DNA from: Paragyromitra xinjiangensis
Lineage: Eukaryota; Ascomycota; Pezizomycetes; Pezizales; Discinaceae
Assembly: GCA_038503065.1 (NCBI GenBank)
Contig: JBCAMK010000015.1
Location: forward strand, 1,302,001 to 1,366,000
Length of the DNA: 64,000 nt
Direction: 5' to 3'
In this document: piece after piece, positions 2,144 through 50,778 of the stretch
How the letters are laid out: each line of letters starts with the position of its first letter
Position numbering within the stretch: the first letter of the stretch is position 1
Position numbers and translations under genes: made by a program
Notes under the pieces: model-generated
What the model was told of the DNA's origin: nothing
The model's input: only the letters and a program-made list of their open reading frames with translations
The model's database searches: none

Positions 2144-2627
2144 TCTGCGCCATTAGCCCTCCGCTTTTCGTTGCCCCTATATCTATATATCGATATACCC
2201 CCTAAACCTTATTTGAGCCGCGTTTTGAGCCTCACTGCCCCTGAGCTCGCTTCCACACATCGATCTCCCACACCTGCTCCTGCTCCTGCTCCTACACACG
2301 CCCTATAGGCAGAGCGATGCCACGCTCGCCTATCTTTTATTGATACCTACTCTTTAGTTTGCAGAGCATACCCTGCCCTATTCTTTCTCAGGCTTTGAGC
2401 CAGCAGCCACAACCCAGATCTCCCTACCTGCCGAGTGCCCCTGACGCACAGACCTCCAAATTCTTCAAATTTGGAGGACGACGCCCAACCCATCAAAAAT
2501 CAGGGTTAGAGTTACCGACTTAGCGAAATCTGCTACGCCTGCCTACCTACCTGTGCCTACCTGCCTACCTGTACCTACCTATTCCCACAATCAATTCAGC
2601 GATTCCTACCTCTATATAGCTGCTACC

Positions 2628-5600
2628 ATGTCAAACCTACCAGCACCTGTCGAAGAGCTCTACAAGAGCAAATATGGCGAATGCTCGAAGCTCAACCACA
2701 CCAACTACACCAAATGGAAGCACAGCATTGAGGTCTTCCTACTAGCTGAGAATGCTCTACAAATTGTCCTTGGCGAAGAGGATGCCCCTGCCGCAAATCT
2801 ACGATCTCAGCTTGCCGATTACAACCTTCGCAAAGGCCGAGCTATTGCAATTATCTACTCCTCCTGTACCTTTGACGTTCAAAGCTATCTCCACGGCATA
2901 TCCAACCCCCAAGAAATGTGGGAACGCCTAAAGGAGAAGCTTGATACTACTGCCTCTAACGCTGGTCGTGCTCTACTCCTCCGAGAATTCCACCGTACTC
3001 ATCCAAAGGAGAATGAGCCTATCTCCACATATATTTCAGCTCTCAGCCGCTATCGCCATCTGTTGGCTCATACTGATCAAGCCATTACTGATGAGACGTT
3101 TATTTACCACCTGATTTCTACCCTTCCTAAGGCTTTTGATAACTTTGTTGATATTGCTTTGGATCGTCCTGAGCACAATGCCGAGCACTTCATCAATAAG
3201 ATCCTTGAGGCAGAAAAGGTCTTACAAAGTCGCCAACCTGATAGTGGCAGCAGCTCCAACATGTCATCCACCTCCGGCAATGCTCTAAGAGTCCAAACCA
3301 ACTATCGAGGATCTGGAAACTCTCGTGGTCGTGGAAATGGTAGAGGAGATAGCCGCAGCCGCAGCCACAGTCGAAATCCCAACCGCTATCAGAGTTATGG
3401 AGGAGGTCGTTCCCGCAGTAGCAGCAGCTCACCACTCTGCTGGTATTGTGGAGCAATTGGTCACGTGGAAAGGGACTGTCATGTGAAGGAGAGAGGAGAG
3501 AGAGCGAGAAGGAGAGGAGGTTTTAGAAGAGGAAGTGGTGGTGGCCCTGGTGGTGGCCCTGGTCGATCCGATGGAAATCCTTCAGCTGGTGCAGCCTTTA
3601 CTACCGTTCAAGCCCTAGCTGCCTTCAGTGATCGCCATGCCTTAGTTGGCAGCCAATATGACGCTACCAATCAATGGATTGTCGACTCTGGTGCCTCTCA
3701 CCATATCTGCCCCAACCGTCGCTTGTTTACCAGCTTCAAAAGGCTCAGCAAGCCCATACAAATACACCTTGGTGATAACTCTACAATCCTGGCTACTGGT
3801 ACTGGTACTATTCGCTTGCTGCTTGGCTCTCAACGATATATTGATATCAAAGATGTTCTGTTTGCTCCTCGCTGCCACCTATCCCTGCTTTCTGTTGGCA
3901 TGCTTTCTACCGAATTCAGCGTTCGTTTCACACAAGGCACCTGCTATATCTCTCGAGCTAGTCAATCAACAGAAGTGCTACTCGCTCGCCTACATGATGG
4001 CCTTTATCGTCTTGCTGGTCAACCTATCCAGTCCTCTGCCACTACCATCCAAGTCAATAGTGCTTCTACTTCGCCATCTCTGGAGCTATGGCATCAACGC
4101 CTTGGTCATTTGGGAGCTACTGCTGTTAAGTCAATTGTTGGAGATTCAGTCAGTGGTCAATTGGACCTGTGCCCAGTATGTGTCAAAGCCAAACACCAGC
4201 GGAAAGTCATTCGGAAGCCAGTACTCCATACTACAGCCCCATTCCAACTTATTCACTCTGATCTTTGTGGCCCTCTCCCTGTTCCATCTGTCTCTGGTGC
4301 TCGATACTTCATCCTCTATATTGATGACTACTCTCGTCGAGCATGGGTCTATTTTCTACGAGGAAAAGAGGCAATTGAAGTGGTTTCCCGATTCCAAGAG
4401 TTTAAGGCATATATTGAGAAGCAGTATCCACAATGGCCAATCACAAGGTTCCGTTGTGATAATGGAAAGGGTGAATATGATAATCGTCTGTTTCGTGGCA
4501 TTCTTCGAGTCTCTGGTATTTCCTTTGAGCCATCGCCACCTTATACCCAGCACAAGAATGGAGTCAGTGAACGCATGATACGGACTATTGTCACCAAAGC
4601 CAGAGCTATGTTGATTGATGCTCAACTACCCTCAGATTTATGGGCTGAAGCAGTTGATACTGCTGTTTACCTTCATGAGCGATCCCCTTCCAGTTCTATC
4701 AATGGAAAGTCCCCTTATGAGATGCTTCATGGAGAGGCTCCTGATCTCTCACATCTCCGTCGATTTGGCTGTCAAGCCAATAAGTTGATCCCCAAAGAGC
4801 AGCGGGTTGATAAGAAGTTTGGACCTCGCTCACTAGAGTGTATCATGATTGGATATGTGCATGATACTCAGAAGATTTGGAGGATTTGGGATCCAGTCGG
4901 AAGACGTGCAGTTCAGGCATCTGACGTCATTTTTGATGAGAGCAAGATTGTGAGCCAATGGAATGGCCAAGAAGAAGCATTGAAGATGCTACTGCCGGAA
5001 GAGGTCATTGAAGTTGAAGACAAAGAACCAGGCTCGTGTGTGGTCCCTGTAGCTGAACAGGATGAGGTGGCTAGACCAGTATTGAGTCGAGAGAGTGTGG
5101 TAGACGTACCACAGGCTAGCACCGCCGAGGAGGAGGAAAGAACTGAGAACAGTGATATCGTCGATGCTAGCAAGCATGTCAGCATGGATTCCAGTGGAGC
5201 TCGAGTTAGAGATACCCAGGCAGAAAGTTTGATGCCCACTGATGCCCAATCACGCCCTCCTCGGTCATATATAAGAAAGAAGGCCGCCGATGAAGTTACC
5301 CCGCCAGAGAATCCAACTCTGAGAAGATCAACAAGAAAACGTACAGTACTTGCCATGAGAGCCAATAGTGAAGCTCAAGAAGATCCTACTAGATATGAGG
5401 AAGCAGTACAACACGAGTCCTGGAAGACGGCAATGCGGGAAGAGTATGCATCTCTGCAGACTAATAAGACCTGGGTATATTGTGATGAAAAGGTCGTTCC
5501 GGCAGGCAGAAAAGTGATTGGATGCAAATGGGTCTATAAGACTAAGAGGAAGCCTGATGGCTCTATCAGATATAAGGCTCGCCTTGTGATCAAAGGCTAT

Positions 5601-6977
5601 GAGCAAGTTGAAGGACTTGATTTTGGAGAGACGTTTGCTCCTGTGGCTAAATTGACTTCTCTTCGTATGATACTTGCGCTGGCCGCACAGTATGATTGGT
5701 TGATTGATCAAATGGATGTGGTGACTGCGTTTCTAAACCCTGAGATTGACGAAGAAGTCTACATGGAAGTCCCCAATGGCATTGATTGGCTGGATCCTGA
5801 TATATCCACTGACGAGTCCTTTAGTACTCCTGTTTGCTGCTTGAAGAAAGCACTTTATGGTCTTAAGCAAGCACCACGCCTTTGGTTCCAAAATATTGAC
5901 AGCTTCTTGAAGACCCTGGGATTCAATCAGTCAACAGCAGATCCTAATATCTACGTCTCGGCCCATGCACTCATACTCCTTTATGTTGATGATATCTTGA
6001 TTGTCAGTCAATCACGAAGGCAATTGGACCTGATAAAACAACAACTATTGGACCGCTACCGCATGACAGACCTTGGTGCCATTCAGCAGTTTCTAGGCTT
6101 GGAGATATCAATACGCCCTGATGTCATAACCCTTCGTCAAACCTGCTTCATTGATACAATACTCCAGCGTTTTGCAATGGCTGATTGCTACGGTCAAGCT
6201 ACACCAATGGAAAGTAAACTCCAGCTGTTTCGAGCTACTGATGACTCTACTGCTGTCCAGCCTCGTGAATACCAGGCTCTTATTGGCAGCCTGATGTATC
6301 TCATGCTAGGCAGTAGACCTGATCTAGCTTTTACCGTATCTACGCTCAGCAAGTTCAACGCCAATCCAACTATGGAACACCTGACAGCAGCCAAACGAGT
6401 CCTTCGATATCTGCAGTACACCAGAAACCTGTCGCTAGTCTACTCTCGAACTGACGCCAATATCAGACTGCAAGGCTTTACTGATTCTGATTGGGCTGGT
6501 TGTAAAGAAGATAGGAAATCTACTTCTGGCTACGTTTTTACCTTGACTGGTGCTGCGATCTCCTGGAAGTCTCGAAAGCAAGAAACAGTATCCCTATCCA
6601 GTACTGAAGCTGAATATATAGCTTGTTCGGAGACTGCTAAGGAAGCTATTTGGCTATGTCGATTACTAGATGAACTGCAATCCGCAAACAGCACCAAATC
6701 GCCCCAAATTATCTACGCTGATAATCAGAGCTCTATGAAGCTAGCTCAGAATCCACGCTTTCACGATCGTACAAAGCACATCGATATAAAACATCACTTT
6801 ATTCGGGAAGCCTGTGAGAAAGGCTTAATAGATCTCAGCTATCTACCAACTGGCGATATGACGGCGGATATCCTGACAAAGGCACTGTCGAAGGATCTTC
6901 ATTGGAGGCACACGCATGGGATGGGATTGAAGGACCCTGATAGGATATCAGACTTGAGTGGGAGTACGCATAGATAG
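2628..6977 (+). CDS. Copia Gag-Pol polyprotein
   Basis: A single 1449-residue frame. I chose the ATG at 2628 (context ACCATGT); the frame is open about 25 codons further upstream but without an ATG. Domains in order: Gag/UBN2-like N-terminus (LNHTNYTKWKHSIEVFL), an Arg/Ser-rich stretch, a CCHC zinc knuckle CWYCGAIGHVERDC (about residues 271-284), aspartic protease DSGA (D at about 353), GAG-pre-integrase (LWHQRLGHLG), integrase core (HSDLCGPL, RFRCDNGKGEY, then QHKNGVSERMIRT), reverse transcriptase with YVDD (about 1119-1122), and RNase H (DSDWAG, SSTEAEYIA, ADNQS, TKHIDIKHHFIRE). No frameshift separates gag from pol, as is usual for Copia. The element could be autonomous. Confidence 0.97.
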   Translation: MSNLPAPVEELYKSKYGECSKLNHTNYTKWKHSIEVFLLAENALQIVLGEEDAPAANLRSQLADYNLRKGRAIAIIYSSCTFDVQSYLHGISNPQEMWERLKEKLDTTASNAGRALLLREFHRTHPKENEPISTYISALSRYRHLLAHTDQAITDETFIYHLISTLPKAFDNFVDIALDRPEHNAEHFINKILEAEKVLQSRQPDSGSSSNMSSTSGNALRVQTNYRGSGNSRGRGNGRGDSRSRSHSRNPNRYQSYGGGRSRSSSSSPLCWYCGAIGHVERDCHVKERGERARRRGGFRRGSGGGPGGGPGRSDGNPSAGAAFTTVQALAAFSDRHALVGSQYDATNQWIVDSGASHHICPNRRLFTSFKRLSKPIQIHLGDNSTILATGTGTIRLLLGSQRYIDIKDVLFAPRCHLSLLSVGMLSTEFSVRFTQGTCYISRASQSTEVLLARLHDGLYRLAGQPIQSSATTIQVNSASTSPSLELWHQRLGHLGATAVKSIVGDSVSGQLDLCPVCVKAKHQRKVIRKPVLHTTAPFQLIHSDLCGPLPVPSVSGARYFILYIDDYSRRAWVYFLRGKEAIEVVSRFQEFKAYIEKQYPQWPITRFRCDNGKGEYDNRLFRGILRVSGISFEPSPPYTQHKNGVSERMIRTIVTKARAMLIDAQLPSDLWAEAVDTAVYLHERSPSSSINGKSPYEMLHGEAPDLSHLRRFGCQANKLIPKEQRVDKKFGPRSLECIMIGYVHDTQKIWRIWDPVGRRAVQASDVIFDESKIVSQWNGQEEALKMLLPEEVIEVEDKEPGSCVVPVAEQDEVARPVLSRESVVDVPQASTAEEEERTENSDIVDASKHVSMDSSGARVRDTQAESLMPTDAQSRPPRSYIRKKAADEVTPPENPTLRRSTRKRTVLAMRANSEAQEDPTRYEEAVQHESWKTAMREEYASLQTNKTWVYCDEKVVPAGRKVIGCKWVYKTKRKPDGSIRYKARLVIKGYEQVEGLDFGETFAPVAKLTSLRMILALAAQYDWLIDQMDVVTAFLNPEIDEEVYMEVPNGIDWLDPDISTDESFSTPVCCLKKALYGLKQAPRLWFQNIDSFLKTLGFNQSTADPNIYVSAHALILLYVDDILIVSQSRRQLDLIKQQLLDRYRMTDLGAIQQFLGLEISIRPDVITLRQTCFIDTILQRFAMADCYGQATPMESKLQLFRATDDSTAVQPREYQALIGSLMYLMLGSRPDLAFTVSTLSKFNANPTMEHLTAAKRVLRYLQYTRNLSLVYSRTDANIRLQGFTDSDWAGCKEDRKSTSGYVFTLTGAAISWKSRKQETVSLSSTEAEYIACSETAKEAIWLCRLLDELQSANSTKSPQIIYADNQSSMKLAQNPRFHDRTKHIDIKHHFIREACEKGLIDLSYLPTGDMTADILTKALSKDLHWRHTHGMGLKDPDRISDLSGSTHR

Positions 6978-34303: not shown

Positions 34304-37023
34304 GGGCGCACGATTTCGCTGTAATTATATTACTCCACCATACTTTCTCTCGGATGATAAGATACCCTAGCCTAAGGCCATAGAATAGCATAATAATATT
34401 ACTAGCTAGAGAATAGAATTCTTACTAGTTGAGTCTAACTTGAGCGTCGTAATCAAGCCTCCATATCTTTTTTTAACTCATCGTTTCATTGTTCTAGGGT
34501 ACAATTGCAAATTGAGCCTCCATATCACGGTTGAAGCTATATATATAGGCCTCAGCCTTTTGCATTACTAATCACCTTTCATACTTCATAAATGGTCTCT
34601 TCTTAGGCTCACCTTTGTGTATTTGCTTTGCGCATCGTGATACATGACTAGTCAGAGCGCAATTCCTACCCTACTGCCTCATGTCAGGCCGTTTCTTTAT
34701 CTGCGAGAAAGTACGTATATATATGTATACGGTAATACGTACACGTATACAAGTGTTAGATAGCCGAAAGCCTTCGGGAGTGCTAGGTCTCTTGGATAGC
34801 ATAAAATCTCAATATAAATCATGCAGGCCTAATATGCAGAGAACTATACTCAGGTTCAAGCGTAAAGAATATGAATTGAGCATGCCTTTTGTCACTCGAG
34901 CAATAGATTTCGATCCCTTCTCACCCAGTGTAACAACACCAACGAGTTATAAGTGTTGGCCAATTCAGATACATATATTCGTCATGCTTTTCTGAGTACT
35001 CAGGTAGGCCATAAGTAGTCGAAAATGTAAACTACATGTAGGTTATCCTGATCAGTTAGACTTTTAAGCTTGTCGTAACCCACAAATTGGCCAAGACACT
35101 CCTAAAGTTTGCGTTTTCGGTTACTTATGGCCTGCAGCTGCCCTGATTACTCTCGTCATACTACACCGAACACCTAGGCCTGTGGGTCGGAAGATATTAT
35201 TGATTTATCTTTAGCCGTGATACGCACACACGAAAATGAAGTGCGCAATCTTTATGGGATAATTGCACACTTGATATATAATATATGAGGGATAGGCCTA
35301 CTAACCTACATATACCAACAATAACGGGTGAAACCAGACTAAGAAACGAAAGAGTATTGTGCCAAGGCTGGTTGAGCAAGTTCTGAAGCTTCGACACCTC
35401 TTGTGAATTTCAAGATTTAGGAATTTTATTGCTTCTCATGCTCCCAATGAAAGTTTTAGCGGTAAGCATCAGCCATAGCTACAGCATCCTGCAGCTGCTT
35501 GCTAACCCTTTCTTCTACTACAAGAATTCTGATTCGAGTCAAACTCTAGTAGTTGAAGTTAGCTTCGGGCTCTATTGGCTAGTCTATAATCGCACGGAGT
35601 TGTCCTGAAATCTCTGTCCGTTTCCATTTGCTATTTTGAGGGCTTCCGTTCTTAGTTAATCATGGTGGAAGGGACTAGGTTAGGAGTTATGATATTATTG
35701 GTTTCTGTGGATGAATCCATTGCATTTAATGACTATTTACTGATTTTAATTAATTATAGCATATATATATATATATATCGAGGCACAATTCCCTTTCTGC
35801 AGTCTCAGCCTAACCTCGTTTGTTGTAATTATGGAAGTATGGTATTGGGAATGTATGTGCATGGGCAAATCTTTCCTACCTAATAAGAATCCCCCTCTCG
35901 AGATTTATGGATATTCCCTGGACAAATAGCGAATCATCAAGGGTAAAAAAATTGACTCTATTAGCCAAAATACTGGTGCAGTGCGAGAAGCCGGGCGCGC
36001 GATTGTTGGGTAGGGGAAATTGTACTATATATACTGTTAGCTAAGTCTAAATCTATGGCCTCCATCAATATCAAAAAACTTCATACACCTTGTTCCAAGA
36101 GCTTAAGATCAGGGTCATATCATGATAAAGTAGGTGATTCCAACCTGCACTATACTAGGCCTAAGTGGCCCATGCGTACGGACATGCCTATATACCTATA
36201 TTGAGATGTGCTACTTTTATTTGCCGGTACTCAGTACTACGAAGCGAGCCGCCGCAACTCCCCGAAGTTGCTAAGTCCTGAATTAAGATCAGCTTTCCCG
36301 CAAGCGAGAATTTCCTTACCAATATTTAAAGATCTTTACTAATAAATCAACCATTCGATGGCTAGCCTTCCCTTTCCCTTTTTAATTTTCTAGTTTGCTT
36401 AGCAGAAATACGTACGCGTATACCCAAATCTCGCTAAGATGAGTTCTTGCCGAGGGCAAACTGTGGAGGGTACTGGTCCGATGGAGCGTGAGCTGAGCCC
36501 ATTTAATTTATAGCTCGTCCGTTAACGTTATAATTAATCTAGATTAATCCCCCTGAGTTAATATTTGGTTAACGCTACAATAGGTCACCGCTATTATATA
36601 CGTATATGCGCTTCAATTGAAGCCGTGTAGATATCAATATATTAGAACGATCGGAAAAAGCTCGCGCGAGGCTAGAAATTGCCGGTGAATTCCCACGGTT
36701 GAGCACTTCACATATAATGAACATAAGACATAACGAATTCAGTTTTCAAGATTTACTGTGCGTGATCTCCGACATTCAGCTCTGCCCTGTGTGATGTCTT
36801 TGAAATATATATTATGTAATCCGGGTCGATGAGTCAGCTCAGGGCGCACGTCTGTAAGTGAATTTTTCAATTCACGTCCATACATGATATATCATGCACT
36901 AAAACCTACACGTGGTGGTATCATGCTAAGTTTTTATTATATCAATTCCCTAAGTTTCTCGGAACCTCTAATAACCGAGTTTTAATAACTGGGAGAACTC
37001 TTGGGGTAGCATACAGTATATAT
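34304..37023. other. Gene-free AT-rich block
   Basis: 2.7 kb with only short open frames, an (AT)n microsatellite near 35760-35778 and ATACGTA-type palindromes. No gene recognised. It ends at the left terminus of the 12-kb element. Confidence 0.45.
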
Positions 37024-37042
37024 CCCTGTGGTACATGCGGCC
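37024..37042 (+). repeat. Left terminal inverted repeat of the 12-kb element
   Basis: CCCTGTGGTACATGCGGCC; it differs from the reverse complement of the right terminus only by G/A and C/T transitions. Confidence 0.75.
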
Positions 37043-37506
37043 CCATACACGTAGTTTAAGTTAAACAATTTTGTGATCTATGGTAAACTACTGGTTGTGT
37101 GAATCAAACAATACCAGCTTCATTAAACCACAAAAATGTTTGTTTTATACACCTGGTCATTTTCTGTGGTTTATTTACACTGCTAGCGTTGGTTGTGGTT
37201 TAATTTGTCATCATAACATGCAGCTATATAGCTACCGGTCGCAACCACACACACATACACACAGTCAATGGGACTACAACCACACACTGGGAGTTCAGAT
37301 TGTACACAACGATCGGCTTACCACGGCTTTAGTTCCCTGCCCTTCTTCATTCTATTCCGTACCTGCATGAAAGCACTACCTTCAAACTAGTGGTTGTAGT
37401 CCTACTCTAATCGCGCAGAGGAAGGTGAGAAATTCCTTCAAAGCGCGATGAGACACGTCACAACAAAAATATGCTGACTAAAAATTGACTAATACAGACA
37501 CTCTTT

Positions 37507-38325
37507 GACAAGCCCGTTCTTTTAACTGTACTTAAACCCACCACCAAACATATTCAAAAGGATATGAGAAATAACTGATCAAGAGAAGCAAACTATAAAA
37601 ACTCACTATATATGCCCTAGACCTACTCAAGGAGCCCAATCTTTTGGCCGTACTGGCTAAGCTCTAGGACGAGTGGTTGTCTATCTGTGAGCCAAAATCA
37701 AAAAAACCCGCCACCATACACACAACTGAGAGCTAAAGGGATATGGCAGATATACAGGACTCCCATATACGCCCTAGACCACCTCAACGAGCCCAATATT
37801 TTGGCCGTACTGGCTAAGCTCTACGACAAGTGCTTGTCTATCTGTGAGCAAAAATCAAAAAACCCGCCACCAAATACATAACAGAGAACTAAAAATGATA
37901 TAACAGATACACAGGACTCCCATATACGCCCTAGACCACCTCAACGAGCCCAATCTTTTGGCCGTACTGGCTAAGCTCTGCGGCGAGTGCCCATCAATCG
38001 GTATGCCTAAATCAAAATTTCCGCCACCACATATACAACAGAGAACTAAAATTTATATGACAGATATACAGGACTCCCATATACGCCATAGACCTACTCA
38101 ACGAGCCCAATCTTTTGGCCGTACTGGCTAAGCTCTGCGGCGAGTGCCCATCAATCGGTATGCCTAAATCAAAATTTCCGCCACTACATATACAACAGAG
38201 AACTAAAAATGATATAACAGATACACAGGACTCCCATATACGCCCTAGACCACCTCAACGAGCCCATTCTTTTGACTGTACTGGCTAAGCTCTGCAACGA
38301 GTGCCCATCAATCAACAAGCCAAAA
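37507..38325 (+). repeat. 157-bp tandem array upstream of the dioxygenase gene
   Basis: Five copies with an exact 157-bp period: the word GTACTGGCTA starts at 37650, 37807, 37964, 38121 and 38278. A shorter degenerate copy lies at the left end. Each unit contains CCCAATCTTTTGGCCGTACTGG and CCGCCAC. The last unit ends a few bases before the dioxygenase ATG, so the array occupies the promoter and leader. Confidence 0.9.
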
Positions 38326-38329
38326 GCAA

Positions 38330-39577
38330 ATGGATTCTACTATTCCGGAGTTTTTTTTGGAGGATTATCTGGATAGCGAGAGTGAGAGTGAGACCTCATA
38401 TACTATGTGGGAGGATATACCAGAACCAGAAGATGAGGAATATTTAGAGTCCGCTCCTTTTCAAAAGTGGAACGCTCCTGAAATACCTGGGCCTCCTGGT
38501 TTAGTCGGACCTGAAAAACCATTGCATTGGAATTGTGAGCCTGCGTGGCATTTTGACCGTGCAGATTCACCTCCTATTAGCGAGTGGGATATTTCTGACT
38601 CTGATAACTCAATGGAGGAAGGATCTATACCAACCGCATCCAAAAACAGACGAAACCGCAAACGAAAGAAAAAACTCAACGGGTACAAGCGAGCAAAAGT
38701 TAATCAAGAACTGAAAGAAGTACACACTGCTCGAAGGGTTAATTTACCTGGCCTACAACGAAGAACTAGAAACCGGCAACCTCCTACACTATTTCAAAGA
38801 ACACCAGAACAGATTTTAGCCTCTCATAAGATTTTTACACGGGATGAAATAGTTCATGGCCTCAAAATTTCAGACTCTTCGCGATCAGGCTGTATGCTTG
38901 TTCATCTTTTTCCCATGAATACTCTCCCGTCCGATATATATGATATTTTGGTCAAATCTCATGAGCTTTATCAGTCATCTGTGGTTTTTCCTATCAACAA
39001 CTACAAGATAAACAATAAACGAGGTTCTTATACCACACAGTTCTTGGGCTGCTGGTACAAATCTGGTCGCTATCTTCAACCTTATATGACTGCACATTAC
39101 AGAGGTCCAGGATCTGGCCGTCACTACAAGCGAGTCAACAATCCCTACTATCTTGCAGCCAAACGGTTTCGGAAAGCCAATCAACGTCTCTTTTCTTTAA
39201 TTGAAGACCTTATCAAAATGCACTACCCTGACATCTATCAACTTTATAATGATATCCAAGTCCCCGAAGGATGTCATAAGTTTGCTGGTTTGTTTGCTGC
39301 TGTGGTTATAAATAACAAAGTTCAAACTAATCTTCATAAAGATTTGGGTGATATCAAAGGTGGTATTTGTATCATCGTGAATTGGGGAAGTTTTAACGGT
39401 GGAGACTTAGTTTTTTCAGAACTTCAATGTGTTGTTCCTTTTCCTGCTGGCTCAATTATTATTTTTCGTTCTGCTATTTTATCTCATTACAATATGCCTG
39501 TTCATGGTTTACGATATTCGATGGTTTTTATGACCGATAAGCGGTTAAAGAGATGGTCAGACAAACAGTTGGTTTAG
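38330..39577 (+). CDS. TET/JBP-like 2-oxoglutarate/Fe(II) dioxygenase
   Basis: One intronless frame of 415 residues. The N-terminal 110 residues are acidic and disordered; residues about 110-150 are Lys/Arg-rich (NRRNRKRKKKLNG), a likely nuclear signal or DNA contact. The C-terminal half has the fungal Tet-like oxygenase pattern: NLHKDLGD (HxD, H336 and D338), FNGGDLVFSEL, VPFPAGSIIIFRSAIL, distal His in LSHYNMP (H386), and Arg in GLRYSMVF (R395) for 2-oxoglutarate. All metal- and cosubstrate-binding positions are present, so it should be active. Family members oxidise methylated pyrimidines in DNA. In fungi TET/JBP genes are known to travel with transposons. The substrate here is inferred. 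Confidence 0.88.
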   Translation: MDSTIPEFFLEDYLDSESESETSYTMWEDIPEPEDEEYLESAPFQKWNAPEIPGPPGLVGPEKPLHWNCEPAWHFDRADSPPISEWDISDSDNSMEEGSIPTASKNRRNRKRKKKLNGYKRAKVNQELKEVHTARRVNLPGLQRRTRNRQPPTLFQRTPEQILASHKIFTRDEIVHGLKISDSSRSGCMLVHLFPMNTLPSDIYDILVKSHELYQSSVVFPINNYKINNKRGSYTTQFLGCWYKSGRYLQPYMTAHYRGPGSGRHYKRVNNPYYLAAKRFRKANQRLFSLIEDLIKMHYPDIYQLYNDIQVPEGCHKFAGLFAAVVINNKVQTNLHKDLGDIKGGICIIVNWGSFNGGDLVFSELQCVVPFPAGSIIIFRSAILSHYNMPVHGLRYSMVFMTDKRLKRWSDKQLV

Positions 39578-40007
39578 TTGGTTTTTTTTAAAAAATGGTA
39601 TATCCGTGGGGTATTTTCTATCAGTAAAAAGTTCAACCTACATTGGATTATATTTACAGTTCTCGGTGTACTAGACACATTAAGTACAGGTTTTTCTAAA
39701 GACTGTTGGACGTATTCAGTGGTATGGCATATATGTGAGTACGTTTAATGTTGGTTCTATCCCACTCATATTCTAATTCACGCTTCAAACACTCGTTACA
39801 GGTTATATAACAGGTATATTTTTTCAATCTCCATACATATATTACTTTCTTTATTGTGAACTACCAGTTGTTTTTAATATTTTAAGTGTTAGTGGATGAA
39901 TCCATTGCTGAGTTGATGTTAGATATCATGTGACTGGCACATGACTTCTGACCTTGATTGATCGCAAACTCAACTCAACCACCACATCTCCTTGTTCCAA
40001 CGTCAAA
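39578..40007. other. Spacer between dioxygenase and transposase genes
   Basis: 430 bp, AT-rich, with no feature seen. It presumably holds the transposase promoter. Confidence 0.4.
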
Positions 40008-40261
40008 AATGCCACGGACACGATTTCCTCGACAATGCGACTGTTCAATGTTTGGAGGAAGTGTGCATAATGTCTCAAGCCAGAGAGATTGGGTTAGGCA
40101 CTCAGCTTTGAAAGCACTGGATGCACGTGTATACCACACAGCACAAGCAGCAGCAGCACTCCAAACTTTGTAAGTGAGTTCATGGAAAAATGGAGGGGCT
40201 GAGTCCGAATTTGGGGATATCGAACCTGAATTCCCTGAAACTGATGAATTTCCGGATCCTG

Positions 40262-40470
40262 CAGACTTTCCCGAGCCAGCAGGTTTTGCTGATTTTCTGG
40301 ATCCTGCAGACTCTCCCGAGCCAGCAGGTTTTGCTGATTTTCTGGATCCTGCAGACTCTCCCGAGCCAGCAGGTTTTGATGATTTTCCGGAACCTGCAGA
40401 CTTTCCCGAGCCAGCAGGTTTTGATGATTTTCCGGAACCTGCAGACTTTCCCGAGCCAGCAGGTTTTGTT
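40262..40470 (+). repeat. 45-bp coding tandem repeat in the transposase
   Basis: More than four units encoding D-F/S-PEPAGF-A/D-DF-L/P-D/E-PA. It makes an acidic, proline-rich segment before the transposase core. Confidence 0.85.
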
Positions 40471-40718
40471 GAACAAGAAGATTTACTTGAATTCTTAGAT
40501 GTGGAGCTGGAAATCTGTGACGTTGAATTACCTGAAAAACGGTATCATGAGAAAGAGTTTATTGCAGGAGAGTTATGTGCAGGAGAGCTGCCGGTACCAG
40601 CATCACCACAATTGGAATCATATAGTGGATTTGAAAGGCCTTTGCTTAAAACAACACAATTGGAATCTGTGTCACTATCTCTAGAGCCAGCCAGACAATT
40701 GCAAAACGAGTTCGAGTA

Positions 40719-42395
40719 CATCAGCAAAAAGGGTTTCGCGCCCAGGCGAGCTTCCGGATATCAGCACGCCTACCTGCGTCCAGCTGCGTCCATACGTCTA
40801 CTACGCCCATACGTTCGCTCTATTGCTCGCCCCAGCACGCCCATACGCCTAGTACGCCCATACGTTCCCTCTATTGCGCGCCCCAGTACGTCCATACGCC
40901 TAGTACGCCCATACGATTGCTCTATTGCGCGCCCCAGCGCGTCCATACGCTTGGTACGCCTGGTATGCCTATACGCCTGGCACACCTATACGCCTGGTAC
41001 GCCCATATGCTTGCTCTATTGCTCGCCCTAGCACGTCCATACGCCCATGCGCCCACATACGCCCACGCCAACATACGCCCATGCGCCCAATCGCTCTATC
41101 GTACGCCCATGCGCCCATATACTGTCTCCTGGTCGCAAATTCAGCCAAGTCGAAACCCTAACCCTCGCTTACCCGACCCTCCTAGGCTCATCATGACCTC
41201 ACACGCGCCTTCCGCCAGCAATTCCCTTATATCAACCACACACCCCACCTCCTGCTCGCCTCCCACTTCCTGCTCGCCTCCCACCTCCTGCTTGCCTCCC
41301 ACCTCCTGCTTGCCTCCCACCTCCTACTCGCCTCCCACCTCCTCACCTCCCACCTCTCCACCTCCCACCTCTCCATCTCCCGCTCACCCCACCCCTCCAA
41401 TCCCCACCTTTTACCCGTCAGTCGACTGTGCTAACATGCTGTACTATAGAGTCTATTCAGCAGTCAATTCGGAGGCTTAGAAACAGCCGATTTGGAGTCT
41501 ATTCAGGAGCCTATTCAGCAGTCAATTCGGAGCCTATTCAGCAGTCAATTCGGAGTCTATTCAGCAGTCAATTCGGAGTCTATTCAGGAGTCAATTCAGC
41601 AGTCAATTCAGCAGTCAATTCGGAGCCTATTCAGGAGCCTATTCAGCAGTCAATTCGGCAGTCAATTCAGCAGGATTCGGAGGCTCAGAAACAGCCGATT
41701 CGGAGTCTATTCAGGAGTCAATTCAGCAGTCAATTCAGCAGTCAATTCGGAGCCTATTCAGGAGTCGATTCAGAGTCTATTCAGCAGTCAATTCGGAGTC
41801 AATTCAGGACTCAATTCAGCAGTCAATTCAGCAGTCAATTCGGAGCCTATTCAGGAGTCGATTCGGAGTCTATTCAGGAGTCTATTCAGCAGTCAATTCA
41901 GCAGTCAATTCGGAGCCTATTCAGGAGTCGATTCGGAGTCTATTCAGCAGTCAATTCGGGAGTCAATTCAGGAGTCAATTCAGAGGCTGCTCAGGAGGCT
42001 GTTCGGGAGTTGATTCGGAGGCAGGCAGGCAGCCGATTCGGAGGCAGTTGGATCAACAGCGGAAGCAAGATAATGGGTGGAATTGCGTCCTACATGTACA
42101 TAGAGCAGAATAGACTATTAGTGCCATACAAAGCAGCGTGACAAGCAGCGTGACATTCTACGTCCAATGCGCCCAATGCCGCCCATGGGAGGCTGTACGT
42201 CCAGTATATCAGGCTCGGATTTTCCAGGCCTGCGCCTGGGCGTGAACGAGGCAGGTCCTACGTCCAGTGCGCCCACACGCACGCCATACTAGTCAGTACG
42301 CCTAGAGCAGTGCCTAAAAAAAATCCGAGCCCAGTGCGCCCAGTGCGCCTATGGCACTGGGCGCGACTGGACGCAGACCCGGCTTTTTGCTGATG
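40719..42395. mobile_element. Nested 1.68-kb TA-flanked non-autonomous element
   Basis: The left end CATCAGCAAAAAG and the right end CTTTTTGCTGATG are inverted copies; similarity continues imperfectly inward for about 30 bp (GGGTTTCGCGCCCAGGCG against GGGTCTGCGTCCAGTCG). TA lies on both sides (40717-40718 and 42396-42397). Removing the element plus one TA joins NEFEY to PNEILTDSDL in the same transposase frame. There is no transposase inside; the interior is GC-rich ACGCCCATACG-type repeats (40.77-41.13 kb), CTCCCACCTCCTG repeats (41.25-41.38 kb) and a 12-bp minisatellite. The TA target suggests a Tc1/mariner-type family. Confidence 0.8.
41448..42010. repeat. 11-12-bp minisatellite inside the nested element
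   Basis: Dozens of units such as AGTCAATTCAGC, AGTCTATTCAGG and AGTCAATTCGG, in higher-order mixtures. Stop codons are absent from more than one frame simply because of the unit sequence. Confidence 0.9.
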
Positions 42396-45300
42396 TATCC
42401 AAATGAAATTCTCACAGACTCGGACCTCAATCTCGGAACCACTCAACCACATGAAGTAGAAGTTGACACAAACGATACTAGACTTTACTCTCCCGGAATA
42501 AGTTTATCAGATGACAGCATACAGAAATCACAAGGCTTACAGCAGCTTCAGGACATGTTAGAACTCAGTTCTAGTTCTGTTAATCCGGATCCAGGACCTT
42601 CTCTTAACGATATTGATGATTATATATCTTCGGACAACTCTGACGACTCTGGACCAGTAGGACAAATGAAAAGAGGCTTTGCTGAGAAACCCAAAACTAT
42701 TGAGTTGGGATCCAGATTACCACCAGCCGATATGGACTCAGACACAAGTTCCGATGATATCCCAACAAATGTGGCTAGTCTTGATGTAGCAGAGGATTTG
42801 GGCTTTGAATATAGACAACCAATTGGCGAATCCCTCACAACACAAGAAAAACTTTCTTTTGCTTTCCATGATATCACTTTAAAACACCAAATTCCTCGGG
42901 AAGCTGCTAATGATATCAGAGAACTTTTCGGGACTGTTTTCTCAGATGGACTACTTGATTATAGGACTGCTAGAAAGCGAATTGAACGAAAAACAGGGGT
43001 TAAAGAAATCTTATATGACTGTTGCCCTCATAGTCACATGTCATTTGCAATGTACCCTGATCTTGATAAATGTACTGATTGCAGTCATCCACGATGGAAA
43101 GAACAGACATTGCACTCCAAAGATTCAACCGGATTAAAGAAGGTTCCTTACGCCACTCATAGCTACATTCCTGTTACCCATCGAATACGTCTATGGTATT
43201 CAAATACGCAAAGGGCAGCCACAATGGTCAAATACAGATTTCAGGCGGAAAAAGATAAAGATAAAGGATTAGTATCTGACTATTGGTCTAGCGACTTATT
43301 TGAGGACATAAGAGATAAAAAAGGTCTTTTCGATCTTGATACAGATGTTGGTTTTATGATGAGCTCAGATGGAGTTAACGTTTTTAAGAGCCGACGAAGC
43401 TTCAGTATTTGGCCTCTTTTATTGGTATTCACTGACCCATTCCTAATGATCAGTACATTGAAACAACTCTAATACTCAAATAGATTAACTTAAACCTGCC
43501 GCCAAACATTAGGTTTAAGAAACGCAATATGTTGTTGGTTGGCTTTATACCAGGGCCAAAAAATCCAAAGGATCTGGATTCATTTCTTTTCCTGTTGATT
43601 CAAGAATTCTTGCAGCTAGAAAGGGGGATCGCGGATGTGTGGAATAGTTCTCGAAAGAGTTACTTTACATTGAAAGCTCATATATGTGTTGTTGGCGCTG
43701 ATATGGTTGGAAGAGAGAAACTAATGAATTTCAAAGGTAATTGGTGACAAAAGTATCAAATGAAACTAGCTGACTATTTCTTCAGGTAACCGAGGAACAA
43801 GTTACTGCCCTTACTGTTATGCCAAAGGGATATACAATCGTGGGATATACTGTCCTCTTAAACCTCCTACAAATCCTCCCACTAAAAAATGTAAAGAAGA
43901 CAACTCAGATCTTGCTTGGCTCACATACGACCCTTTCAATTTACCAATGCGCAATGATCAAGACACTCGAAAAGTTGCTGAACATGTGGTAAGGACAGGG
44001 GATGATATCGCTGCCAAAAAGTATGGGATTAAAGGACCTTCTTGTCTTTCAGAGCTGTCATCAATAGATGTCCCTCGCAGCTTTCCACCTGACGGCATGC
44101 ATTTATGGTGGGAGAATATTCTTCCAGATCTCGTGAAACACTGGCGTGGCAAGTTCTTCTCTGAAATAGTTACAGCTAGTATTGCTGATGCTGTTGTCAA
44201 AGATGCTCATAATCTTGGTCGCAGTGCTAGTGATGGAGACGAGTCATGGGAATCAGAGGACTCAGATTCTTCAGAAGACAGTCAAAAAGGGAGTAAATAT
44301 CCAGCACCTGGGAAACATAGGACGCAGCAAAAGAAGAAGTAGAAGAGTAAGAAAGGTAATACCAAGGGAAAGCAAAAAATAACTTCAACCACAATAAAGA
44401 AATTCATCAAAACTGATGACCCATATAATATACATCCAACAGAATGGATTCAAATTGGAAAAGATATGGCAAGCAGCGCTGCAACTTTTCCAACGCTTTT
44501 CGGAGAGCCAATAAGAGACTTTACCGAGCATTGTCAACACCTTAAAGCGGCAGAATGGAAAACCTTCACCTTCATCCTAGCACCAATATATATGAAAGGT
44601 CGGCTGCCAGAAGAGGATTATGTAGAATTGATCAATCTCATTGACGCCATCCACCTCTGTTGTGATTATGAAATCACAACTAGTGAGATTTTAGTCGTTG
44701 AAAGCCGTTTACAACGTTTTGTTGAATACTATGAGCGACGGTATTATAATCAACGTTGGGAGCGACTGTCAGCCTGTTTACCCGTGATCCACCAAGTTCT
44801 TCATGTGGCACAAGGAATTCGTTGGGCTGGACCAATGTTTGTTTATTGGCAATGGCCAATGGAGAGGGTTTGTGGTATGATTGCTGCCTCTGCGAAATCT
44901 CGTGTTTCAGCAAATCGCAACATGGCAATAACTATGACACTGAATGAGAGTCAGAACCATTTGCCGTATGTTATAACACATCCCACTACTGATGGGGAGT
45001 TTGAGGACTCAGATGGCAATGTCCTACTTCATCGGTTATTCGTCAAACGCCTTCAAACTAACCAGTCAAAACAAGTTTCATCACAAGTCTTACATGATGT
45101 ATTCAACAGACCAGCTAGGTCTCAGGCGTTGAATAATTGGCAACGTAGGGCTCTAAAGACTTTTTTTCAACAAAAGGTTACAGCAGAAAGTGCTATGCTT
45201 ACGATTCAAGACGATATGTTGAATACCGAAGTTGCATTGGAAGGAGTCCCAAAGCACTGCCTACATTGGACTTCCTATACATCAAAAGACATTGACGAGT

Positions 45301-45775
45301 CATTCACAGTAGTATCTTCCATGATGAGAAGAACAAACTCAACCAGGAATTCTTCAATGGTTATGTATGTGGTAAGAATTGCTGATGGATCTTACCGTCT
45401 TGCCTTTGGAGAGGTACTATTCTTTTTTACCATTCAAAAAGAGGATAAGAATACAGAGCATTTAGCTTATGTACAACAGTTTACGGTGGCAGCTGAAGGA
45501 AGACTTTTATACCAAGTAAGTCTTGGAATAAAAGTAGTCATTGAAGCTACTAATATTCGTGAATTGATTGAGCTCATCAAAAATGTTGATCGGATGTATA
45601 TAGTGCAACGCAATACCTGTATGTTCTAAAAGGGAAAAACCCTAACTCGCATGTTTGGCTATTACCCTGTTTTGTCCTGAATACTACTTTAACACGCAAA
45701 CACTATTTCAACGTCACATCTTCCCCACTCCTCATCATCACACCGATTCACTCATATCCATCTCATCCATCAACT

Positions 45776-48020
45776 ATGTCAGACTATCAAGCCTTTATGA
45801 GAGAGAAAAGGAGAATTGCTGATGCTGCTTGGGCAGCGCAAGTTACTTCTCAAAGTATGTTTTCACTCTTGATTAGTAGTTGCATGCTAGTAAACTGATA
45901 ATGACTGATATTTGACAATATTGTAGGAACTGAAATGACCGCTACTCGCTCTCAAGAAACTTGGATCCCTGACTCACAGTCAACTCAGCAAACGCCAGCC
46001 CCAGAACTTAGTGTTCACAGTGATTCAGAGTCCTCGCAAATCTCGAATTTAGCTACTAGCAACAACCTTCCCATAAGGAAGCTGACCACACTGTCAAGAA
46101 ATGACTCTAATGCTTCAGTTGAAGAATCTGTTATCAATAAAGCTACTACGAAGAGTGTCACACTACCTTCTAGTCCAGTTCATGCTGTTGAAAGGTCTAA
46201 AAAAACAGGTAAAAGTAAACTAACTGGCTATAAAGATCGCAAAGAGATGGCACGAAGAATGCGGCTGGATCCAAGCGAGTCTTTTGCTATTAGAGAAAAG
46301 CGAGAGTTTGTTAAAGTTGCTTGTATGAGACGTGGAGTGTTTCTTGACAAGCCATTTGAGGACTTTGAGGTCGCTGTTATGTATAAGCTGGTGAAAGTGG
46401 TTACACCTGAACTGCAGGCTCAGTATGGTGACTGGTGGCCTATGGATCTTACTCGAGATCTTATCCATGCTATCTGTTTGGATAAGGTACGTAATAATAA
46501 TGCTAGAAAAAGAGCTAAACAGAAGAAGCAGACTGTACATCATTCAAAGGATGTCCCACCAAACTCAGACGACGAGCAGCAACTCATCCCGCAAAAGAAG
46601 AAGTTGCGTCCTGTTGTGGATTCCTCAGATGATGAATTGGGTACTGACACATATACCGCTGCCCAAAAAAGAGCTTCAGGAACAACACGAAGAAAGTCAA
46701 GCCTGCCTCCATTGAATATTGACTTTATTACAACCACTCCCAAGGCTACAGCAGGTGTAAGCACGGGTGTATCTTTGACTGGAATAACTCCAAAAAGCAG
46801 CATTGATCCAGAGTTGTTGGCGCTCTCACCATTTAGTCTGCTAACATCTAGTCCTCTTATCAGTATGCTCATACTCACTACATACTATGTACAAAACTAA
46901 TTATAGATTGAACACATAGGTAATCGTTTCCTCTCAGGTGCAGTACCTTCTGCACCAACTGGTACAGAGAAAAATGGCTTGGAAGTTGAAAGTAAAACTA
47001 CAGCCCCACGCCAAACAGTATTGGATAATAGTGGAGTCAAGCCAGCAGCCACTCGACCCAGTACTCCAAGTTTGACTATTTTCATTATTGACCAAAATCC
47101 CTTCGAGATACCGTTTGATGCTCCATTCTCTGAGTTTTATACTCTAATTTCTCGTTTTTTGGTTTGTGATGAGAGTCAATTCATCCAGTATCACCCTGCT
47201 AATGGGAAGAAAAATGATCTGATCTGGCGACCCATTTCCGTTGAAGAGGAGTATGGTAAATTGTTGAGGCTGTGTGGTCATGTTGGGGTTCTACTTAGAG
47301 TTGTTGAAGGAGAGTATTTTAACTCTGAGGCTGAGGAAGAGGTATGTGCTTACATTTATGATTCATACTCCGCTGACTTTTGTAGGTGGAGGAATCCATT
47401 GGTTCTCAAGCTTTGAGTTGGGGGGTAGTGGACTTGAATAAGACAGAAGATATCCCGACCTCAAATCGTAATAAAACGGTTCAGTTGCCGCTACTATTAA
47501 TTTTACTTTCTCGTAGCTACTAACAATGCTGACTTTGTTTTAATAGACTAGGACAATTGAGGATATCTTGAGACCAGACACACTACCAACTGATTTAAAT
47601 CGCAAAGCGTCCAAAGCTGCTGAAGCAAGTACTGAGGTAGAAAGTTCCAACGTGGAACAATATCTTATTGGAAGCTTGTCTACTCAACCTCTTTCAGGAC
47701 AAAAGAATGTGGGCCGAAAGCGAGAAACCAGTACAAAGAAAACCTTTCTAGCAGCAGGACCTTCTGAACCAGTGAAGCGTAAGCCAGGCCGTCCTAGGAA
47801 GAATCCACTACCACTTGTTTCTCCAGCTGAGTCGCAACCACCATCTCACACAAGTTCTCAAGCCCCCAGTAGCTTGAAAACTAGTAGAGCCGGAAGAGTG
47901 ATTAAGAAGAGTGAGAAAGCTTCTGAAAATTCTAGGAATGAAACTGCCAAACGTCTGGCTGATAAGCTGACTGTTGCTAGGAGGAATTTGAAAAGGATAA
48001 AAGCAGAGTTTACACTTTAG
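45776..48020 (+). CDS. Transposon accessory protein with AT-hook
   Basis: Five exons: 45776-45854, 45927-46862, 46938-47341, 47386-47478 and 47547-48020; introns of 72, 75, 44 and 68 nt; phases agree throughout; 661 residues with no stop or frameshift. It begins MSDYQAFMREKRRIADAAW. A conserved-looking block lies near 46220-46510 (GYKDRKEMARRMRLDPSES, then DWWPMDLTRDLIHAICLDK). A second block, SLTIFIIDQNPFEIPFDAPF, lies near 47070. An AT-hook (KRKPGRPRKNP, about 47778-47810) precedes a basic coiled C-terminus. I do not recognise the family. By position and DNA-binding motif it may play the part TnpA plays in En/Spm, binding the subterminal repeats. Confidence 0.75.
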
Positions 48021-48274
48021 CTGAATGTGGCCATTTTCAAAAGGCCGGTTTTCAGGACAGTATACAATCGAAGTGAAAATTTTTGGTATTTTGGTACATC
48101 CCTCCCACACATTTCTATTCATTTGATACTAACATTATGCTATCTGACAATAGTTTCTTTTGATACCTATACGCAATATCTTTTTCTTGTATCTGAGCCA
48201 GTAGGGGTTTGGGGTTTAACATACCCGTGGTGGCTTAATTACATTGTCGTTTAGTTCAAAATAAAAGTTTTGTT

Positions 48275-48640
48275 TGAATAAACCATCTTGTAGTTTGGCT
48301 AAACCACTTGCGTGTTTGACTAAACCACTACCTGGTTGTTTGACTAAACCACATGACCGTTTGGCTAAACCACTTGCATGTTTGACTAAACCACCACTTG
48401 GTCGTTTGACTAAACCACCCGGTCGTTTGACTAAACCACATGACCGTTTGACTAAACCACCACTTAGTAGTTTGGCTAAACTACTTGACTGTTTGACTAA
48501 ACCACCTGCACATTTGACTAAACAACATGGTTGTTTGGCTAAACCACATGGTCGTTTGACTAAACCACATAGTTGTTTAACTAAATCACATGGCTGTTTA
48601 ACTAAACCACTTAGTTGCTTGTTTAAACTACTATAATCAA
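48275..48640 (+). repeat. Subterminal array of GTTTGACTAAACCAC units
   Basis: About 16 copies of GTTTGRCTAAACCAC spaced by short variable words (CTTG, ATGACC, CTGGTC). Single GTGGTTTA copies in opposite orientation lie near the left end (37138-37210), so both ends carry the motif. Confidence 0.85.
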
Positions 48641-48653
48641 ATCATTAATTCTT

Positions 48654-48870
48654 TATTGTTTAACTATTGTTTACCTGTTGTTTACCTGTTGTTTACCTGT
48701 TGTTTACTTATCGTTTATCCATTGTTTACCTGTTGTTTACCTGTTGTTTACCCGTTGTTTACTTATCGTTTATCCATTGTTTACCTGTTGTTTACCTGTT
48801 GTTTACCTGTTGTTTACTTATCGTTTATTCATTGTTTACTTGTTGTTTACTTGTTGTTTGAACGTTGTTT
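48654..48870 (+). repeat. 11-bp array TGTTTACCTGT
   Basis: About 18 units, TGTTTACCTGT with variants TGTTTACTTAT and CGTTTATCCAT, in a higher-order pattern. It lies directly inside the right terminus of the 12-kb element. Confidence 0.85.
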
Positions 48871-49025
48871 GCTAAAACCATTTGGTGTAATCTGTTTAAA
48901 TACTTATGGTATATTTTTATTGCTTAACTACTGCTTTTATACACCCTTGCTAGCAAATAAATAATCTATGTTAAACCACCAGTATGTTTATTTAAACCAT
49001 GCTCCTGAGTGTTTATTTAAACGCC

Positions 49026-49044
49026 GGCCACATGTACTACAGGG
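49026..49044 (-). repeat. Right terminal inverted repeat of the 12-kb element
   Basis: GGCCACATGTACTACAGGG on the plus strand, the imperfect reverse complement of the left terminus. Confidence 0.75.
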
Positions 49045-50778
49045 ATATGCTAGAGAAATTTCGAAATTTCTCTAAAGTATACACGGCAGAAGTAAGCAGT
49101 GGTAATACCGTATAATCTCAGTTTATTCGGACGGTTGCCGAGAGTCGTGGCTGGCGCCATAAACAAAAACTAATACTTTCTAAGGGGTGATCGAAGCAAA
49201 GCACAGCTCCAACATGAAAACTAGGTCATTTAGGGGGGATCAAAGCCAACACCAGAGTACCCAAGCCAAAGTTAAGTATATTCCACCCAGAAATAGCATA
49301 GTATCCGCAAGCCACCTGCTTGGCAACCATCCGAGATTATACGGTAGGGCGGTTACTGACGTTGAATAGTGTTTCACGAATTTTGTGATTCTAGTATACG
49401 TAGTCGCCAACGATCGATCGCCGCTCCATGTCTCACTAAAGCCTGCGCAGAAATACAGTAGTTTCTCGCAAATAACAAATACAACCGAACTGAGACTGCA
49501 GGGCGAGAGTTGCTGTTAGATTAGCTATTTAGCCGAGTAGACACTGAGACTCAATTACGTATACACCCAGCTAAGAACCAAAGAAATCTTCAGGTTTAAC
49601 GTAGATAGCAAAGATCTCGTTGCCCGCCGAGCGATATTACCATTCTATTATGCAGCCTCAGCCCGGTCGTATTCGTTATTTGCAAGGAAATAGGTACGGT
49701 ACCCAACTCTTCGGGTTTCTGCGTATACGGTATGGTGGACAGCCCAGTCACGCCAGTGGAGTAACCTATACATGTAGCTAAGGACCTCTGCCAAAACTTA
49801 TGTGTTGGCCCAGCGGGCGAGGCGCCCATAAATGGTTGGTGTTACCATACCGTATTATCTCGGGAATAGGAAACTGGCCTAGGCTAGACTGAAATACTTT
49901 AATCAAAATCACTCTATCAGGGAAGTAAATTATTGACTGTGCAGTAATTTCTGATGCTTAGCAGTCACTTTTGTCATTTTCCCGAGCCTTTTGGAGGGCC
50001 GATTTAGAAGTGCCTAGTCCAGGCCAGTCTCCTATTCCCGAGATAATACGGTATATGGCCAAGTCTACATACTCTACCAACGAAAACTATATAGAGTACC
50101 GATTTGTAGTAGTATACAGGTCTGGCTGTATACTCTATAAAAGCGTAGGCCGGGAGATCTACAGTTTTTAGGCCGTAATCAGAGCTTCCTTGATATGCTT
50201 CGCGATCGTATACATACTAATTCACAGAAGTGATCGATGACCAAAGAGAAGCATAGCTAAAACAATCAGTAGATTTATCAATCTACCCTCACTTTCCTAC
50301 CAAATGAATCTCCGGGATAGCAAATTCGCCAAGAATGCGGGTTGAGAAAACACAGCGGGCTTCGACCTAGCTAGTTGGCCAATAACCTTTAACTGCGATC
50401 CGGATCCACCCTCCAATGTACAGCTGTTTCATCACCTTGTGCCTTGGTTAATGCGGCAGAATAACTCGTATTTTAGTGGTGCCCGCAAATAGACTTTCCC
50501 CTGCGCATGTAGTCGTGCTCCTAGACTTGTCACGGCTCCCGATATCTGGTGGGTATGGTACTCGCGTAACTATATATATAGTAAGTTCTACCCCGAATTT
50601 GATTCTATCACTAACGACCTTCGAATTTGGTGCTACAAGCAAAAACACAGTAGCCAGATAACTAAGCCTTTAAGGTAATGTCAACCTCCTCTCGTAGAGG
50701 ATACATAAATTCTAACTTGCTATTCAGGGATATCTAAACTTTCTTAGTTCTATAGTGCGAAAGTCCCCCAAACTAGAG
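49045..50778. other. Gene-free block
   Basis: 1.7 kb between the transposon and paralogue B. CGGTATTATCTCGGGAATAGGA (49850s) is repeated in inverse form (TATTCCCGAGATAATACGGTA, 50030s), a small inverted pair about 180 bp apart. No gene seen. Confidence 0.4.

What the first reader, a model, noticed from the sequence alone, without database searches (positions are those of the whole stretch)
37024..49044. A CACTA-type transposon carrying its own TET/JBP-like DNA dioxygenase and an AT-hook protein
Seen: three plus-strand genes and subterminal arrays enclosed by inverted CCCTGT termini. The first gene encodes a complete Tet-like oxygenase (HxD, distal His, Arg), the second a Tnp2 transposase, the third an AT-hook protein. 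Known: fungal TET/JBP genes are mostly linked to KDZ transposons, with some capture by other transposon types; in plant En/Spm, DNA methylation of subterminal repeats silences the element and TnpA counteracts it. Inferred: the oxygenase may remove or change methyl marks on the element's own ends, giving self-reactivation. Tnp2 plus TET in an ascomycete is, to my knowledge, little described.
Basis: partly seen in the sequence, partly recalled or inferred. Interest (0 to 1): 0.92.

Follow-up and report, generated by a model that had tools for sequence, protein, structure and literature searches.

The report
Broken fungal transposon carrying TET-like enzyme
In a fungus that is probably a morel or a close relative, a jumping gene carries its own intact copy of a DNA-demethylase-like enzyme; such captures are already known in fungi, but this pairing of enzyme type and transposon type looks new, and this copy's own transposase has been broken by another jumping gene.

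Summary
The core observation holds. 37024-49044 is bounded by 19-bp inverted CCCTGT(G/A)GTACATG termini and encloses an intact 415-aa Tet_JBP protein (TET), a Tnp2 transposase and an AT-hook protein. The same termini bound three short non-autonomous copies elsewhere in the genome; two have 3-bp target duplications.

Corrections. (1) The arrays at 40719-42395 are a second, nested, repeated transposon (CATCA..TGATG termini, TA duplication) inside the transposase gene, which starts near 40009 and also has an in-frame TAG at 44340. This copy is unlikely to be autonomous. (2) No other copy found in this genome carries TET, so co-mobilisation rests on one locus. (3) Termini are not CAC, and this copy lacks the 3-bp duplication; the transposase matches both Tnp2 and Plavaka profiles.

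TET capture by DNA transposons, EnSpm and Plavaka included, was published in December 2025 (PMC12730594). Its main text reports only Helitron and IS3EU carriers in Ascomycota, with an HxE enzyme type; here the motif is HxD, as in other types. Verdict: new variant of a known kind. Self-demethylation is plausible but untested.

The parts
37024..37042 (+). left terminal inverted repeat CCCTGTGGTACATGCGGCC
   Evidence: the 14-mer forms 4 inverted pairs genome-wide
37608..38330 (+). left subterminal array, 157-bp unit x 4.6, ending at the TET start codon
   Evidence: units recur in the partial left ends at C6 and C22
38330..39577 (+). TET/JBP-type 2OG-Fe(II) oxygenase, 415 aa, single open frame; H336xD338, D341, H386, R395
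40009..40718 (+). N-terminal part of the Tnp2 transposase gene (CDCSM..H..H finger-like start, FPEPAGF repeats); in-frame TAA at 40171 that may be an intron donor (GTAAGT)
   Evidence: 10 of 58 Tnp2 relatives match here, among them Morchella P0046 and P0051, and P0031
40719..42395 (.). nested non-autonomous transposon (CATCAGCAAAAAG..CTTTTTGCTGATG termini, TA duplication), repeated in the host; interrupts the transposase coding sequence
42396..43424 (+). Tnp2 transposase, continued (first catalytic D by reading)
43484..43736 (+). Tnp2 exon after predicted intron 43425-43483 (second catalytic D by reading)
   Evidence: PF02992
43786..44342 (+). Tnp2 exon after predicted intron 43737-43785, ending at an in-frame TAG at 44340-44342 where relatives read on
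44343..45629 (+). C-terminal part of Tnp2 downstream of the TAG (H(3)H and catalytic E region by reading)
45935..48020 (+). third gene, several exons (boundaries approximate), AT-hook at 47775-47804
48270..48859 (+). right subterminal arrays (21/24-bp GTTTGACTAAACCAC units; 11-bp TTGTTTACCTG units)
   Evidence: 48667-48826 matches the short C14 copy at 81%
49026..49044 (-). right terminal inverted repeat CCCTGTAGTACATGTGGCC

Best explanation
This is one decayed, originally about 10.3-kb copy of a Tnp2 (EnSpm/Plavaka-like) DNA transposon that captured a TET/JBP oxygenase gene; a nested 1.68-kb transposon later landed in its transposase gene. Proposed working of an intact element: the transposase cuts at the CCCTGT ends; the AT-hook protein binds the AT-rich subterminal arrays; the oxygenase, whose start codon abuts the left subterminal array, oxidises 5-methylcytosine placed by host methyltransferases and so lifts silencing of the element's ends and promoters. 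Shown: ends, gene content, intact oxygenase frame with conserved catalytic residues, short sister copies with target duplications, disrupted transposase. Inferred: protein binding to the arrays, oxidation of 5mC, benefit to the element.
For: Ends and sister copies: (C3 and C14 copies 98% identical, with duplications CAT and TCA). TET; in alignment A2 the Fe ligands H336 and D338 are kept in 23 of 24 rows and D341 is Asp or Asn in 23 of 24; Asp/Asn there contacts N4 of 5mC in hTet2, NgTet1 and CMD1 (passages of PMC11040006 and PMC7854593). Foldseek's best PDB match of the domain model is CcTet (7vpn_D, E 6.7e-4). Tnp2: (nearest named relative Morchella sextelata, 70-73%). Third gene belongs to the lineage: its one other homologue lies about 5 kb from a related Tnp2. 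Nested insertion. Host has DNA_methylase matches at 3 places.
Against: No second TET-bearing copy of the element was found in this genome. The three other Tnp2 loci over cut-off have no TET match nearby. No contig length is shared between the TET hits and the Tnp2 hits of the protein database, compared by eye, so linkage elsewhere is unshown. The window copy lacks the 3-bp duplication. The match to Tet_JBP is near cut-off and the profile match to CcTet has only E 0.25. A2 left out 6 of the 20 rows of A1; in A1 one row (P0011) has Tyr for H336, and D341 is Tyr in one row and Val in one. The third-gene homologue has two stops and lies on the opposite strand. Host methylation and enzyme activity were not measured.
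Confidence: 0.6

Rival explanations
1. The TET gene is a passenger: captured or trapped between the element's ends, without a role in its life cycle, and only by chance still open.
For: Single TET-bearing copy; the other Tnp2 loci lack TET nearby; the transposase is already broken, so the copy is decaying. 415 codons without a stop is weak evidence when a roughly threefold longer gene has only one or two.
Against: Catalytic and base-contact residues are kept; the gene abuts the element's own subterminal array and has the orientation of the other two genes; 8 of the 19 first-round homologues are of 429-453 aa; repeated capture of TET by unrelated fungal transposons (PMC12730594) argues for a benefit.
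Confidence: 0.25
2. The oxygenase acts on another mark (6mA, or thymine as JBP does) or at many loci, so its effect is genome-wide rather than on its own element.
For: CcTet acts on 5mC and 6mA (listed abstract and passages of PMC11040006); oxidised mC in C. cinerea lies also over other transposons (as told in PMC12730594).
Against: The two CcTet positions tied to 6mA (Gly331, Asp337) align with Asp and Cys here; Asp at the first is the state of NgTet1 and CMD1.
Confidence: 0.3
3. The 12-kb unit is a composite of unrelated fragments that happen to lie between two TIRs, not one transposon.
For: A nested transposon is inside; the window copy has no 3-bp duplication; no other full-length copy was found.
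Against: Both ends match the two ends of the short C14 copy (its 1-156 on the left, its 788-947 and 963-1038 on the right); ATAT flanks both TIRs; a third-gene homologue and a Tnp2 lie about 5 kb apart again at C15:1157-1165 kb.
Confidence: 0.1

Closest known systems
TET+ EnSpm and TET+ Plavaka transposons of Basidiomycota (Kojima 2025, PMC12730594)
   Same: Tnp2-related CMCT transposase, TET/JBP gene inside the termini, 2-3 bp target duplications
   Different: Probable ascomycete host; CCC..GGG termini (theirs CAC..GTG, or CATCA..TGATG); HxD here as in the PU type carried by rust EnSpm, which could not be compared, and not HxE as in the PE type
TET+ Helitron1 and IS3EU of Pezizomycetes (PMC12730594)
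   Same: Probably the same host class; TET inside a mobile element
   Different: Different transposase (Tnp2); HxD motif where the paper's PE type has HxE
CcTet of Coprinopsis cinerea (7vpn, 7w5p, 8jkk)
   Same: Best structural match; HxD, distal His, Arg
   Different: About 12% identity in the structural alignment; positions of Gly331 and Asp337 are Asp and Cys
KDZ (Kyakuja-Dileera-Zisupton) TET transposons
   Same: TET beside a transposase
   Different: Transposase is Tnp2, not KDZ; the one KDZ match in this genome is elsewhere (C9)
Plant En/Spm (recalled)
   Same: Two proteins plus subterminal repeats
   Different: No oxygenase; TnpA was not compared with gene 3

Membership tests
TET/JBP dioxygenases | Tet_JBP domain | tested here: met
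   33.2 bits, under the 34.9 cut-off; 35.4 bits, over it, in the six-frame search; precomputed PF12851 in 14 of 19 homologues
TET/JBP dioxygenases | HxD...H Fe(II) triad and Arg for 2OG | tested here: met
   H336, D338, H386, R395; kept in 23, 23, 21 and 19 of 24 rows of A2, gaps counted as misses
TET/JBP dioxygenases | oxidation of 5mC in DNA | not testable with these tools
   needs an assay
PE-type TET (Kojima 2025) | HxE in place of HxD | tested here: not met
   HKD at 336-338; Asp in 23 of 24 rows, one gap
AG-type TET (CcTet-like) | Asp337 equivalent | tested here: not met
   Cys347 at H+11, Cys in 24 of 24 rows
PU-type TET (Kojima 2025) | PU-type conserved residues | not tested
   the paper's alignment figure is not held
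CACTA/EnSpm | Tnp2 transposase | tested here: met
   PF02992 68.3 bits, cut-off 28.6
CACTA/EnSpm | CAC..GTG termini | tested here: not met
   CCC..GGG
CACTA/EnSpm | 3-bp target duplication | tested here: inconclusive
   2 of 3 short copies yes; window copy no
Plavaka | Plavaka transposase domain | tested here: met
   PF18759 33.7 bits, cut-off 26.3, weaker than PF02992
Plavaka | TGT..ACA or CATCA..TGATG termini | tested here: not met
   CCC..GGG; the nested element 40719-42395 does have CATCA..TGATG
KDZ | KDZ transposase domain | tested here: not met
   the only PF18758 match in the genome is at C9, outside the window

The most novel reading that the evidence does not exclude
A separate HxD lineage of transposon-borne TET, with the canonical 5mC-contact Asp, was captured by a CCC-ended Tnp2 lineage in Pezizales and placed directly behind its subterminal array, forming with the AT-hook protein a self-demethylation module that keeps the element's ends active. 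(Whether the lineage is separate from the HxD PU type of rusts was not testable here.)
Probability: 0.3. Interest if true: 0.6.

Novelty: new variant of a known kind. Interest (0 to 1): 0.42.

Why it matters
It adds a Tnp2 carrier and an HxD enzyme to the TET-transposon pairings reported for Pezizomycetes, a group in which 5mC falls almost only on transposons in the one truffle told of in PMC12730594. The layout, with TET abutting the subterminal array, makes the escape-from-silencing idea directly testable by methylation maps and an enzyme assay.

Tried and rejected
Rejected: AlkB or prolyl hydroxylase (no such Pfam hit; ABH3 ranks tenth, below nine CcTet chains). Rejected: KDZ transposase. 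Rejected: internal arrays as part of the element. Led nowhere: viral contigs (two pattern matches, no relative) and plasmids (no match) for the TET; full-length AlphaFold model (pLDDT 38, not used); contig lengths of TET hits against Tnp2 hits (no coincidence, by eye); papers on morel methylation (of the 10 and 8 listed, none is on it); Iyer et al. 2014 is not held, so its content is recalled only. RIP indices (thresholds recalled): within the element both pass only in the AT-rich right arrays; they pass in the right flank too, so they say little. Transposase tree: 33 of 59 rows used, 26 dropped for coverage of the core; the other Tnp2 loci of this genome were not in it.
Full report
Setting. 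The window is G000:C15:1302001-1366000 of an unnamed 48.2-Mb, 22-contig genome. The nearest named relative of the transposase is from Morchella sextelata (70% identity; 73% over 277 columns, and in one clade with the window and P0026, support 99/93); M. snyderi, M. importuna and Pyronema omphalodes are among the 58 hits. One of 29 TET homologues is named, from Tuber borchii. The host is therefore probably a morel or a near relative; this is inferred, not looked up.

Ends. Arms 37020-37042 and 49026-49048 are 91% complementary. CCCTGTNGTACATG occurs 11 times exactly in the genome: inverted pairs at C3, C4, C14 and at the window element, plus single exact ends at C6 (two) and C22. The C3, C4 and C14 pairs bound 1.0-kb elements in which tblastn with the TET, Tnp2 and third-gene pieces finds nothing; C14 and C3 are 98% identical, C4 91%. 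Flanks: C3 CAT/CAT, C14 TCA/TCA, C4 CAT/AAT, so 2 of 3 have a 3-bp duplication. The window copy has TAT/ATA in that register, that is 4-bp ATAT or 2-bp AT. The left end recurs at C6 (90% over 690 columns, followed by a right-end piece in inverted order) and C22 (80% over 531 columns; 79%); neither has TET, Tnp2 or third-gene matches in the DNA held, 3 kb for C6 and 20 kb for C22.

Oxygenase. 38330-39577 is one open frame directly after the 157-bp subterminal array (array 37608-38330). Tet_JBP scores 33.2 bits or 35.4, near the 34.9 cut-off. There are 19 homologues at first and 29 with the profile. In alignment A2 (24 rows: the window, 13 first-round hits and 10 further ones) H336 and D338 are kept in 23, D341 is D or N in 23, H386 is kept in 21 and R395 in 19, gaps counted as misses. 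A2 leaves out P0011 and P0015-P0019 of the 20-row A1, chosen by me for coverage; in A1 the counts are H 17, D 18, D/N 17, H 14 and R 13 of 20, with Tyr for H336 in one row. The position of D341 is that of Asn1387 in hTet2, Asp234 in NgTet1 and Asp350 in CMD1, which bond to N4 of 5mC; CcTet has Gly331 there and uses Asp337 (passages of PMC11040006 and PMC7854593); here the latter is Cys. This placing rests on the HxD spacing and on the CcTet alignment, whose E-value is only 0.25. The domain model is modest (pLDDT 57, pTM 0.55); its best PDB match is CcTet (E 6.7e-4, the only one of 185 under 0.001), with ABH3, CMD1 and NgTet1 following.

Transposase. Spliced over 43425-43483 and 43737-43785 it matches Transposase_21 (68.3 bits) and Plavaka (33.7 bits). 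By reading the translation one sees D, D, C(2)C, H(3)H and E as PMC12730594 describes for the CMCT clade. Relatives reach further upstream: 10 of 58 hits, among them M. snyderi P0046 and M. importuna P0051 and the unnamed P0031, match between 40024 and 40716, so the gene begins near the ATG at 40009. Between lies the 1,677-bp element 40719-42395 with termini CATCAGCAAAAAG/CTTTTTGCTGATG, flanked by TA on both sides; joining the flanks leaves one open frame across the site. One search lists matches of the 39578-42350 query at 38 other places by my count (40 of 169 candidates scored, so a lower bound); 18 of the 38 reach to within 8 bases of the query's right end, and many of the rest share only the 12-bp array region. 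In four copies that I read the homology stops at the same right terminus; the left terminus was seen in two of them. Its termini are those that the paper gives for PlavakaB. Further, the frame has TAG at 44340-44342 where P0020 and the related locus L061 read on, and TAA at 40171 that could be an intron donor. This copy is thus very probably not autonomous. An ATG at 42351 inside the nested element's right end could start a shortened protein; whether it does is unknown.

Third gene. It has several exons with an AT-hook at 47775-47804. The one other homologue found in the genome, with two stops, is at C15:1157077-1157628, on the minus strand, about 5 kb from a related Tnp2 on the plus strand; no TET match lies between them in the stretch fetched. 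It thus looks like an old companion of this transposase lineage and TET like the later addition; this rests on one decayed locus.

Other TETs of the genome. C1:3431858 and C12:824328 lie in a repeated stretch that is 98.7% identical over 6.08 kb; the C1 copy has Helitron_like_N and PIF1 domains (the C12 frames were not scanned for these). Both TETs read HQD, not HxE. The rest are relics or weak matches.

Literature. Of PMC12730594 I read the abstract, passages, sections 18, 23 and 34 and the first of two parts of section 24; supplements were not seen. It shows TET captured by many fungal transposons, proposes escape from silencing, and names Helitron and IS3EU as the carriers found in Ascomycota. 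Searches (15 of 9,102 listed; 5 of 5; 10 of 743; 3 of 3) of the open library listed no paper on a Tnp2 carrier of TET in Pezizomycetes; most subscription papers and Table S1 were out of reach.

Host methylation. DNA_methylase (PF00145) matches lie at three places, one with a TAG inside the match; methylation itself was not seen.

Conclusion. A TET-bearing Tnp2 element, now broken; a new variant of a published kind. The mechanism, self-demethylation of the ends by TET with AT-hook binding to the arrays, is inferred.

Noticed in passing
40719-42395: Nested repeated non-autonomous transposon with CATCA..TGATG termini (PlavakaB-like by the termini in PMC12730594), TA duplication and internal 51-, 18- and 12-bp arrays; matches at 38 or more other places in the genome, not all of them full copies.
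   Followed up: yes
L057:29-6111 and L058:1-6081 (C1 and C12): 98.7% identical stretches, each with an open TET frame; Helitron domains confirmed in the C1 copy. The motif is HQD rather than the HxE given as hallmark of the Pezizomycete type.
   Followed up: partly
L054 5030-5554, L055 5348-5578, L056 5138-5410, L059 4844-5352: Fragments or weak matches of TET genes; no match to the window's Tnp2 in the 10 kb held around each.
   Followed up: partly
C6:242627-243384 (L049): Left end of the element followed by a right end in inverted order: probably a rearranged remnant of another copy.
   Followed up: partly
C9:1457361, C3:1794722, C3:2995367: DNA_methylase (PF00145) matches, so the host has candidate cytosine-methylation genes.
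   Followed up: no
2445-6977: Copia-like retrotransposon polyprotein in one 1,510-aa frame (recognised by reading, not tested).
   Followed up: no
42351: An ATG inside the nested element's right end is in frame with the rest of the transposase and could give a protein without the N-terminal finger.
   Followed up: no
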